A stretch of 51,765 nt of DNA from Chloroflexota bacterium (GTDB lineage: Bacteria > Chloroflexota > Dehalococcoidia > SM23-28-2 > JACOUE01): NCBI GenBank assembly GCA_016178045.1, contig JACOUE010000065.1, forward strand, positions 1 to 51,765, in the 5' to 3' direction. The position numbers and the translations under genes are program-made. This document shows positions 39,954 to 40,720 of the stretch, piece by piece; positions within the stretch are counted from its first letter, which is position 1; each line of letters begins with the position of its first letter. The notes under the pieces are model-generated. The model saw only the letters and a list, made by a program, of their open reading frames with translations. It did no database searches and was not told the DNA's origin.

Positions 39954-39962
39954 TGCTATAAT
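39954..39962 (+). promoter_or_regulatory. Extended -10 promoter of the DsbA-like gene
   Basis: TGCTATAAT, consensus extended -10, ends 11 nt before ATG 39974. It supports a gene start upstream of the TGA at 40100, and so supports readthrough. Confidence 0.55.
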
Positions 39963-39973
39963 GCCTCGTAGCT

Positions 39974-40681
39974 ATGGAATCGTGGGTGCTGGGCCAGGAC
40001 GAAGGCGAAGTCGAGCGCCACGCGGGTGTCGAGCCCGAAGAGCCAGCCGGCCAGCCGCCACAGCAGACACTCCGCCTGCGGCTGGTCTCCGACTACATCT
40101 GACCGTGGTGCTACATCGGCCTGGTCCGGGCCGAGCAGCTTGCGCGGGAGTTTCCCGTGGAGATCGAGGCCTGGGCGTTCGACCTGCGGCCGGGCATCCC
40201 ACCCGAGGGCCTGCCCCGCGATTCCGTCTACAAGGGGGGACGCTACACGCCGCAGTACTTCGAGTACCTGCGGGACATGGCGGCGGAGGCCGGCATCACG
40301 ATGACGGCGCCCTCGGTGGTGGCGAGCACGAGCAAGGCCCACGAGGCGACGGAGTTCGCCAAGCGGGCCGGCAAGGGGCTCGAGTTCAACCACGCCGTCT
40401 TCCAGGCCTACTGGGAGCGCGGTGAGAACATCGGCCGGGTGGAGGTGCTGGCGGAGGCGGCGGCCGGCTGCGGCCTCGACGCCGGGGCCCTGCGCCAGGC
40501 CCTGGAGGCCGGCACCTACGCCCACGATGTAGAGGAGCAGATGCGCTGGTCGCGGATGGCCGGCGTGGGCGGCATACCCACGTTCATCTTCAACGAGAAG
40601 TTCGCCCTGGTGGGCGCCCAGACGTACGACGTGTTCCAGAACGTCGCTCAGCGCCTGCTCTCGGGGGAGCTGAAAGCGTAG
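39974..40681 (+). CDS. DsbA/FrnE-like oxidoreductase, probable selenoprotein (U-PWC)
   Basis: A 235-codon gene that reads through TGA at 40100-40102 (codon 43). Around it: LRLRLVSDYI-U-PWCYIGLVRAEQLAREFPVEIEAWAF. FrnE/DsbA-like proteins carry DxxCPWCYIG here, so TGA replaces the first active-site cysteine; the second (C46) is kept. The rest is complete: FDLRPGIPPEGLP, ATEFAKRAGKGLEFNHAVFQAYW, GVGGIPTFIFNEKFALVGAQ, with the cis-Pro in GIPTF. The 42 codons upstream of TGA have no stop and start right after a consensus promoter. A hairpin with loop TGGTCCG starts about 18 nt after the TGA. The N-terminal 30 residues are unlike the family, so the exact start is uncertain. TAG ends the gene. Confidence 0.82.
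40100..40139 (+). promoter_or_regulatory. Candidate bacterial SECIS element of the DsbA-like gene
   Basis: TGA at 40100-40102. Upper stem CGGCC (40117-40121) and GGCCG (40129-40133) around loop TGGTCCG, with a lower GCT/AGC pairing at 40110-40112 and 40137-40139. The GGTC in the loop is 24-27 nt from the T of TGA, much like the GGTC of the E. coli fdhF SECIS loop. Confidence 0.7.
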
Positions 40682-40694
40682 CGTCACTTCTACC

Positions 40695-40720
40695 GTAGGC
40701 CAGGCTTAAGCCTGGCCTAC
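40695..40720. repeat. Solitary 26-bp perfect palindrome of the REP type
   Basis: GTAGGCCAGGCTT and its exact complement, with no spacer. The same sequence type is in the RAYT-associated arrays at 19.5-20.3 kb. Placed 14 bp after the DsbA-like stop, it may also act as a terminator. Confidence 0.85.

What the first reader, a model, noticed from the sequence alone, without database searches (positions are those of the whole stretch)
39974..40681. DsbA/FrnE-like selenoprotein with U-PWC in place of C-PWC
A second TGA (40100) replaces the first active-site cysteine of DxxCPWCYIG, the nucleophilic one, with the resolving Cys kept. The frame is open for 42 codons upstream and starts 11 nt after a consensus extended -10. 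A hairpin with a TGGTCCG loop has GGTC at 24-27 nt after the T of TGA, very similar to the fdhF SECIS loop. Two independent thiol-redox genes with TGA at catalytic Cys in one 52-kb window make chance nonsense mutations very unlikely.
Basis: partly seen in the sequence, partly recalled or inferred. Interest (0 to 1): 0.9.

Follow-up and report, generated by a model that had tools for sequence, protein, structure and literature searches.

The report
Selenocysteine version of a FrnE-type redox enzyme
This bacterial gene uses a stop-like codon to put selenocysteine in the active site of a disulfide-handling enzyme; the reading is sound, and this kind of selenoprotein has been known since 2005, though it seems to be common in this phylum.

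Summary
TGA 40100 lies in frame in a PF01323 gene (39974-40681) at the first active-site Cys of CPWC. It is no sequencing error: of 61 TGA-flagged homologous rows read, own copy included, 60 have TGA at exactly this codon. The genome has tRNA-Sec, SelA, SelB and SelD. 37 of 37 relatives with the TGA form have tRNA-Sec or SelB. A hairpin that fits the published bacterial SECIS model follows the TGA; such hairpins are stronger in 39 TGA rows than in 35 Cys rows. The predicted fold matches D. radiodurans FrnE best. DsbA-like UxxC selenoproteins (COG2761/pfam01323) have been in print since 2005: a new member of a known kind. Modest additions: in a 400-genome phylum sample 66 of 102 matched genomes have a TGA in the match; Sec and Cys swapped repeatedly; and in the window's order the gene looks leaderless, mostly carries an N-terminal extension and usually precedes an acyl-CoA dehydrogenase gene.

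The parts
39957..39962 (+). -10 hexamer TATAAT, extended by TG at 39954-39955; 11 nt before the ATG, so the mRNA is probably leaderless
   Evidence: Sequence. A -10-like hexamer lies close before the start in 15 of 16 order loci printed, own included, L065 being the exception. The sigma-70 scan finds no -35/-10 pair. Leaderless is inference.
39974..40681 (+). frnE-like CDS, 235 aa with Sec43; DsbA-family thiol-disulfide oxidoreductase, probably cytoplasmic
   Evidence: PF01323 E 2.2e-30; D. radiodurans FrnE E 5e-26; AlphaFold2 mean pLDDT 87.4; best Foldseek hit 5co3 FrnE E 4.9e-15
39974..40072 (+). N-terminal extension of about 33 aa (MESWVLGQDEGEVERHAG...), residues 2-26 predicted with low confidence
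   Evidence: An (M/V)(E/D)SW start in 13 of 16 order loci printed, own included; not in L060, L062 and diverged in L067; pLDDT under 50 for residues 2-26
40100..40102 (+). TGA read as selenocysteine, in the place of the nucleophilic first Cys of CPWC
   Evidence: TGA at this codon in 60 of 61 TGA-flagged rows read; Cys in the 34 other distinct rows kept
40109..40111 (+). Codon for the second (resolving) Cys46 of U-P-W-C
40116..40134 (+). bSECIS-type hairpin: 8-bp stem UCGGCCUG/CGGGCCGA, apical loop GUC, 21 nt between UGA and loop
   Evidence: fits the model quoted in PMC13188914; covariation; not significant by itself
40695..40720 (+). Perfect 26-nt palindrome between this gene and the acyl-CoA dehydrogenase gene; role unknown
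   Evidence: no second such element in the window, one imperfect relative in the genome
40760..41932 (+). Acyl-CoA dehydrogenase gene, downstream neighbour
   Evidence: Pfam; orthologue downstream on the same strand in 12 of 15 order relatives, directly adjacent in 11 and about 1.2 kb away in L063/L026

Best explanation
The gene encodes a Sec-containing FrnE-type, DsbA-fold thiol-disulfide oxidoreductase, probably cytoplasmic. Ribosomes reach UGA 43; SelB carrying Sec-tRNA-Sec binds the hairpin 13 nt past the UGA and selenocysteine is inserted instead of termination. Sec43 sits at the N-terminus of the first thioredoxin-fold helix, attacks substrate disulfides (or, when oxidised, donates the bond) and forms a selenenylsulfide with Cys46. 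Shown by computation: reading frame, family, fold, position of the TGA, Sec machinery, comparative hairpin signal. Inferred: that Sec is inserted, that the protein works as a reductase/isomerase like D. radiodurans FrnE, that selenium speeds it up, and its electron donor. It lacks the C-terminal CXXXXC that is proposed to recharge D. radiodurans FrnE, so something else must do so.
For: PF01323 across the TGA. tRNA-Sec(tca) 79 bits, SelB, SelD with one TGA within its match (place not checked), SelA 473 bits. TGA at this codon in 39 of 40 class-level TGA-flagged rows read, own copy included, and in 21 of 21 further phylum ones. tRNA-Sec or SelB in 37 of 37 TGA relatives against 48 of the other 82 (Fisher 1.9e-7, not corrected for kinship); of ten genomes with verified Cys form four lack both. 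Hairpin energy median -8.8 in 39 TGA rows against -1.6 in 35 Cys rows. Covariation 0.296 against 0.128 in shuffles. TGA ends 7 of 12 other window frames checked. Fold: Sec43 just before helix 44-59; best match FrnE.
Against: No protein or read data. The window's own hairpin is not significant alone (z -1.03; p 0.16). Only 11 of 39 TGA rows pass p<0.05 individually (0 of 35 Cys rows); L104 and L098 are weak and L091 fits another register, while some Cys rows score well (L043 -12.8; L045, L067, L071 about -7.7). The scorer is a simple one of mine; 7 Cys rows without any hairpin got a placeholder of +9, and the Cys rows include distant, less GC-rich taxa. The Cys control also shows some excess pairing in this register (0.256 against 0.200), so part of the covariation may come from the protein. 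Rfam gives no hit here. Six order genomes have the Cys form although they keep tRNA-Sec and SelB, so Sec is not indispensable.
Confidence: 0.95

Rival explanations
1. The TGA is a sequencing or assembly error, or a nonsense mutation in a dying gene.
For: The window lies in a fragmented genome of 85 contigs, 89.8% complete; one base change would give a Cys codon.
Against: The same codon is TGA in 59 other loci read, and the frame is otherwise intact, with PF01323 at 2.2e-30.
Confidence: 0.01
2. The organism reads TGA as a sense codon throughout (a changed genetic code).
For: An in-frame TGA occurs in at least two window genes and within the SelD match.
Against: TGA is the stop codon of 7 of 12 other window frames checked, 3 of the 6 that have Pfam support; tRNA-Sec, SelA, SelB and SelD are present; the TGA falls at a catalytic Cys.
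Confidence: 0.01
3. UGA is read as Cys or by general readthrough in some share of translation, giving a Cys enzyme or a mixed product.
For: Cys fills this site in 34 of 94 distinct rows, so a Cys product would probably work.
Against: All 37 TGA relatives have tRNA-Sec or SelB, and a SECIS-type hairpin goes with the TGA.
Confidence: 0.03
4. It is a selenoprotein, but its job is not general disulfide exchange: it serves acyl-CoA metabolism, for example as a glutathione- or CoA-linked isomerase or a redox guard of the neighbouring acyl-CoA dehydrogenase.
For: An acyl-CoA dehydrogenase orthologue lies downstream in 12 of 15 order loci. 2-hydroxychromene-2-carboxylate isomerase and kappa GST share the fold at lower score. 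The 2026 review lists a DsbA-like form 2 named with the crotonase family.
Against: The closest solved proteins are disulfide oxidoreductases of the FrnE/DsbA kind; L060 and L062 have another acyl-CoA dehydrogenase gene upstream on the opposite strand instead, and L069 shows none in its flanks.
Confidence: 0.15

Closest known systems
DsbA-like selenoprotein family (pfam01323/COG2761, motif UxxC): Sargasso Sea 2005 (PMC1088965), GOS 'DsbA 1' 2008 (PMC2398784), 'DsbA-like protein form 1' in the 2026 review (PMC13188914)
   Same: Pfam family, UxxC with Sec at the first position, bacterial SECIS-type hairpin (passages); that COG2761 is the FrnE COG is recalled
   Different: Order-specific N-terminal extension and apparent leaderless start. 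Sequences of the published members were not compared directly. 'Chloroflex' occurs 0 times in PMC13188914, PMC2398784 and PMC9312934
Deinococcus radiodurans FrnE (DR_0659; PDB 5cnw, 5co3, 5cp1, 5coh, 5xwh)
   Same: DsbA fold with CPWC at the same place, 30% identity over 218 alignment columns
   Different: Sec instead of Cys22; no C-terminal CXXXXC (residues 239-244 in DrFrnE); extra N-terminal extension
Streptomyces coelicolor SCO1869 (PDB 3gl5), putative DsbA oxidoreductase
   Same: Fold and family
   Different: More distant (E 2e-14 by sequence); not examined further
NCBIfam NF041057, Rcas_1661 family thioredoxin-like (seleno)lipoprotein (listed as DsbG-like in PMC13188914)
   Same: Weak similarity over residues 122-226
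   Different: 32 bits against a cut-off of 190: not a member

Membership tests
DsbA-like UxxC selenoprotein (pfam01323/COG2761) | PF01323 domain above the curated cut-off | tested here: met
   106.3 bits against 25.6
DsbA-like UxxC selenoprotein (pfam01323/COG2761) | In-frame TGA aligned with the first Cys of CXXC | tested here: met
DsbA-like UxxC selenoprotein (pfam01323/COG2761) | bSECIS model: 4-16 bp stem, loop 3-9 nt, G in the first two loop positions, spacing 16-37 nt (as quoted in PMC13188914) | tested here: met
   8-bp stem, loop GUC, spacing 21; the paper's free-energy limit was cut off in the passage and not applied
DsbA-like UxxC selenoprotein (pfam01323/COG2761) | Sec machinery in the genome (tRNA-Sec, SelA, SelB, SelD) | tested here: met
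DsbA-like UxxC selenoprotein (pfam01323/COG2761) | Sec found in the purified protein | not testable with these tools
   Needs mass spectrometry or 75Se
FrnE subfamily of DsbA | Sequence and fold closest to FrnE, CP(W/F)C-type motif | tested here: met
   (Sec replaces the first Cys)
FrnE subfamily of DsbA | C-terminal CXXXXC (in many but not all members; absent from D. maricopensis and S. roseofulvus FrnE according to PMC8945050, passages) | tested here: not met
   No such motif in P0001; by that paper not a feature of every FrnE
FrnE subfamily of DsbA | Disulfide reductase/isomerase activity | not testable with these tools
   Bench assay
Periplasmic DsbA | Signal peptide and export | tested here: inconclusive
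   The N-terminus MESWVLGQDEGEVERHAG... has no hydrophobic stretch on inspection; no predictor was run

The most novel reading that the evidence does not exclude
In this phylum Sec is the prevailing form of FrnE, repeatedly swapped with Cys even where the Sec machinery is kept, and in the window's order it belongs to a leaderless, extension-bearing frnE/acyl-CoA dehydrogenase pair in which the selenoenzyme guards or services acyl-CoA oxidation.
Probability: 0.25. Interest if true: 0.45.

Novelty: new member of a known kind. Interest (0 to 1): 0.3.

Why it matters
An ordinary gene finder would see a 42-codon fragment and, for instance, the 174-aa ORF that begins at GTG 40157, and so lose the active site. 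The same could happen in dozens of genomes of the phylum: 66 of the 102 genomes with a match in a 400-genome sample have a TGA within the match (67 rows; the place of the TGA was read for 25 of those 67 rows). The frequent Sec/Cys exchange at one active site, with Sec machinery present on both sides in the window's order, would be a natural test bed for what selenium buys a disulfide reductase.

Tried and rejected
Sequencing error, dying gene and a changed code were considered and rejected (see rivals). Rfam has no hit at the hairpin up to E 1. NF041057 was rejected, being far under its cut-off. The N-terminal extension was searched as a possible shared tag in 31 genomes: all ten matches better than E 0.03 are this same gene; the best other ones are E 0.038 in G011 and E 0.27 in the own genome. 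A scan of viral contigs found no relative, with patterns of which one contains Cys and so favours Cys forms; 732 plasmid records hold relatives, all under 60% identity, and the five listed were not examined for TGA. A first regular-expression check of the AhpD relatives failed and was replaced by an HMMER-based one. Literature: selenoprotein + FrnE (9 papers, none about a bacterial FrnE by its title), selenoprotein + DsbA + Chloroflexi (2 papers), selenocysteine + Chloroflexota (6 papers) and selenoprotein + SAR202 (0 papers) gave no listing whose title or abstract start describes this family in Chloroflexota; of the papers I read passages of PMC1794560 only. That is not proof of absence from print.

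Full report
Observation. The window is contig C22 of a genome of 2.03 Mb in 85 contigs, 89.8% complete. The closest named relatives are Chloroflexi/Chloroflexota records, four of the named loci being identical to same-order genomes over the 75 nt from the active-site codon; that the phylum is Chloroflexota is inferred from this. The frame 39974-40681 runs from ATG to TAG with one TGA at 40100. With that TGA read as a residue the product is 235 aa with motif SDYI-U-PWC-YIG; Pfam DSBA covers residues 36-223 at E 2.2e-30.

Not an error. A search of 120 genomes (own one included) found 66 with a match. I read the loci given by that search (L055-L084) and 20 further TGA-flagged stretches. That makes 40 TGA-flagged rows; in 39 the TGA stands for the first Cys of the motif (L094 and L100 missed the script's automatic motif but show TGA at the same place in its printout, and adds them). 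The 40th (G076, L097) has Cys in the motif. Three further TGA-flagged weak matches (two in G052, one at G092:C5) were not fetched. In a phylum sample of 400 genomes 102 had a match at E 1e-20, in 105 rows; by my count 67 rows, in 66 genomes, have a TGA within the match. Of the 22 new loci given there 21 are TGA-flagged and have TGA at the motif; L126 has Cys. Altogether 60 of 61 TGA-flagged rows read, own copy included, have TGA at this codon. For 42 of the 67 TGA rows only the presence of a TGA within the match is known, not its place. The query is itself a Sec form, so the sample may lean towards its nearer kin.

Machinery. Own genome: tRNA-Sec with anticodon TCA, SelB with its winged-helix domains, SelA, SelD with one TGA within its match, place not checked. 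In the same 120 genomes, own included, tRNA-Sec was found in 81 and SelB in 72 at the limits set. Of the 37 relatives with the verified TGA form 34 have tRNA-Sec, 32 SelB and 37 at least one; of the other 82 relatives 48 have at least one (Fisher p 1.9e-7, kinship ignored). Ten genomes with verified Cys form and no verified TGA form: six order members keep both parts, four (G055, G083, G106, G076) have neither.

Hairpin. Constraints as in the published bacterial model (3-9 nt loop, a G in its first two positions, stem of 4 bp or more, spacing 16-37 nt; quoted in PMC13188914, passages seen; the paper's free-energy limit was not applied). By a simple stacking score of my own the best-hairpin energy has a median of -8.8 kcal/mol in 39 TGA rows and -1.6 in 35 distinct Cys rows (Mann-Whitney 6.5e-11, kinship ignored; 7 Cys rows with no hairpin at all got +9). 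Exceptions on both sides: TGA rows L104 (-2.0) and L098 (-4.2) are weak and L091 is in another register; Cys rows L043 (-12.8), L045, L067 and L071 (about -7.7) score well. Against synonymous-codon shuffles the median p is 0.08 for TGA rows (11 of 39 under 0.05) and 0.61 for Cys rows (0 of 35). Some divergent members use another register: L093 and L095 have an 8-bp stem with a GUC loop at spacing 25, L096 a GGUC loop at spacing 32. Pair counts on 37 distinct TGA rows: 81.1% paired, covariation 0.296 against 0.128 in shuffles and at most 0.171 when slid. Cys rows: 60.4%, 0.256 against 0.200. The window's own hairpin taken alone is not significant, and Rfam has no hit.

Code. TGA ends 7 of 12 other window frames checked; of the 6 among them with Pfam support, 3 end in TGA. 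So it is an ordinary stop here as well.

Fold and family. The AlphaFold2 model (19 sequences in the alignment, mean pLDDT 87.4, pTM 0.83) shows Sec43 between strand 33-39 and helix 44-59; residues 2-26 are not confidently placed. The best five Foldseek matches are D. radiodurans FrnE structures, followed by SCO1869; YjbH, HCCA isomerase, kappa GST and DsbM come later. Sequence search agrees. [quoted passage not shown] The window protein has no such motif, so its recharging partner is unknown. That selenium speeds the reaction is inference.

Evolution. On a quick tree of 94 rows (trait column masked) Sec/Cys needs at least 16 changes, 7 of them forced by starred branches, against 27.8 in shuffles. 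39 of 91 inner branches are open, and the named Cys set was picked with patterns of which one contains Cys, so the direction of change is not settled. In the branch that holds the window's order, a four-row Cys clade (L067-L070) and two more Cys rows (L063, L066) lie beside ten Sec rows.

Gene layout. A TATAAT-like hexamer lies close before the start in 15 of 16 order loci printed, own included (not L065); by eye the gap to the start codon is 6-14 nt. In L060 and L062, which lack the N-terminal extension, the hexamer sits correspondingly closer to the domain. This suggests a leaderless mRNA; the scan found no -35/-10 pair. An (M/V)(E/D)SW start is seen in 13 of the 16, and a search with the extension found nothing convincing on other genes. 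An acyl-CoA dehydrogenase orthologue lies downstream on the same strand in 12 of 15 order relatives (L056-L059, L061, L064-L068, L070 adjacent; L063, seen through L026, with about 1.2 kb between; not L060, L062, L069).

Known or new. DsbA-like protein, COG2761, UXXC, nine sequences: Sargasso Sea 2005 (PMC1088965, passages). DsbA 1, pfam01323, UxxC, 63 sequences: GOS 2008 (PMC2398784, passages). DsbA-like form 1, PF01323, UxxC: 2026 review (PMC13188914, passages). DsbA-like selenoproteins in Anaeromyxobacter, Desulfovibrio and Desulfotomaculum, and three selenoproteins of three families in the Chloroflexi then sequenced: 2006 (PMC1794560, passages). So the kind is known, and this is a well-supported new member. 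The high share of Sec forms in this phylum and the layout in this order were not met in the passages I saw, but my literature search was small.

Noticed in passing
In the 30 loci read, own included and some overlapping or repeating one gene, TGA is at this same site in 25; 4 have Cys and L147 has its TGA elsewhere. AhpD-like CxxU is also a known selenoprotein kind.
   Followed up: partly
L020 (G000:C16:13088-14023) and L152 (G000:C26:41255-41725): SelD of this genome has a TGA within its match, and a second AhpD-like frame with SCEYU (and a TAA flagged within the match) lies on C26, the contig that also carries selA.
   Followed up: partly
window 40695-40720: A perfect 26-nt palindrome between this gene and the acyl-CoA dehydrogenase gene; no other copy in the window and one imperfect relative in the genome.
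   Followed up: partly
L031, L032, L033, L034, L053: Cys forms in named Anaerolineales/Leptolinea records group with Sec forms of the phylum sample (L106-L109, L111, L114 and others), so the Sec/Cys exchange is not limited to the window's order.
   Followed up: partly
L071 (G055:C195:10357-10983): A homologue whose match is flagged with a TAA while its active-site codon is Cys; not examined further.
   Followed up: no
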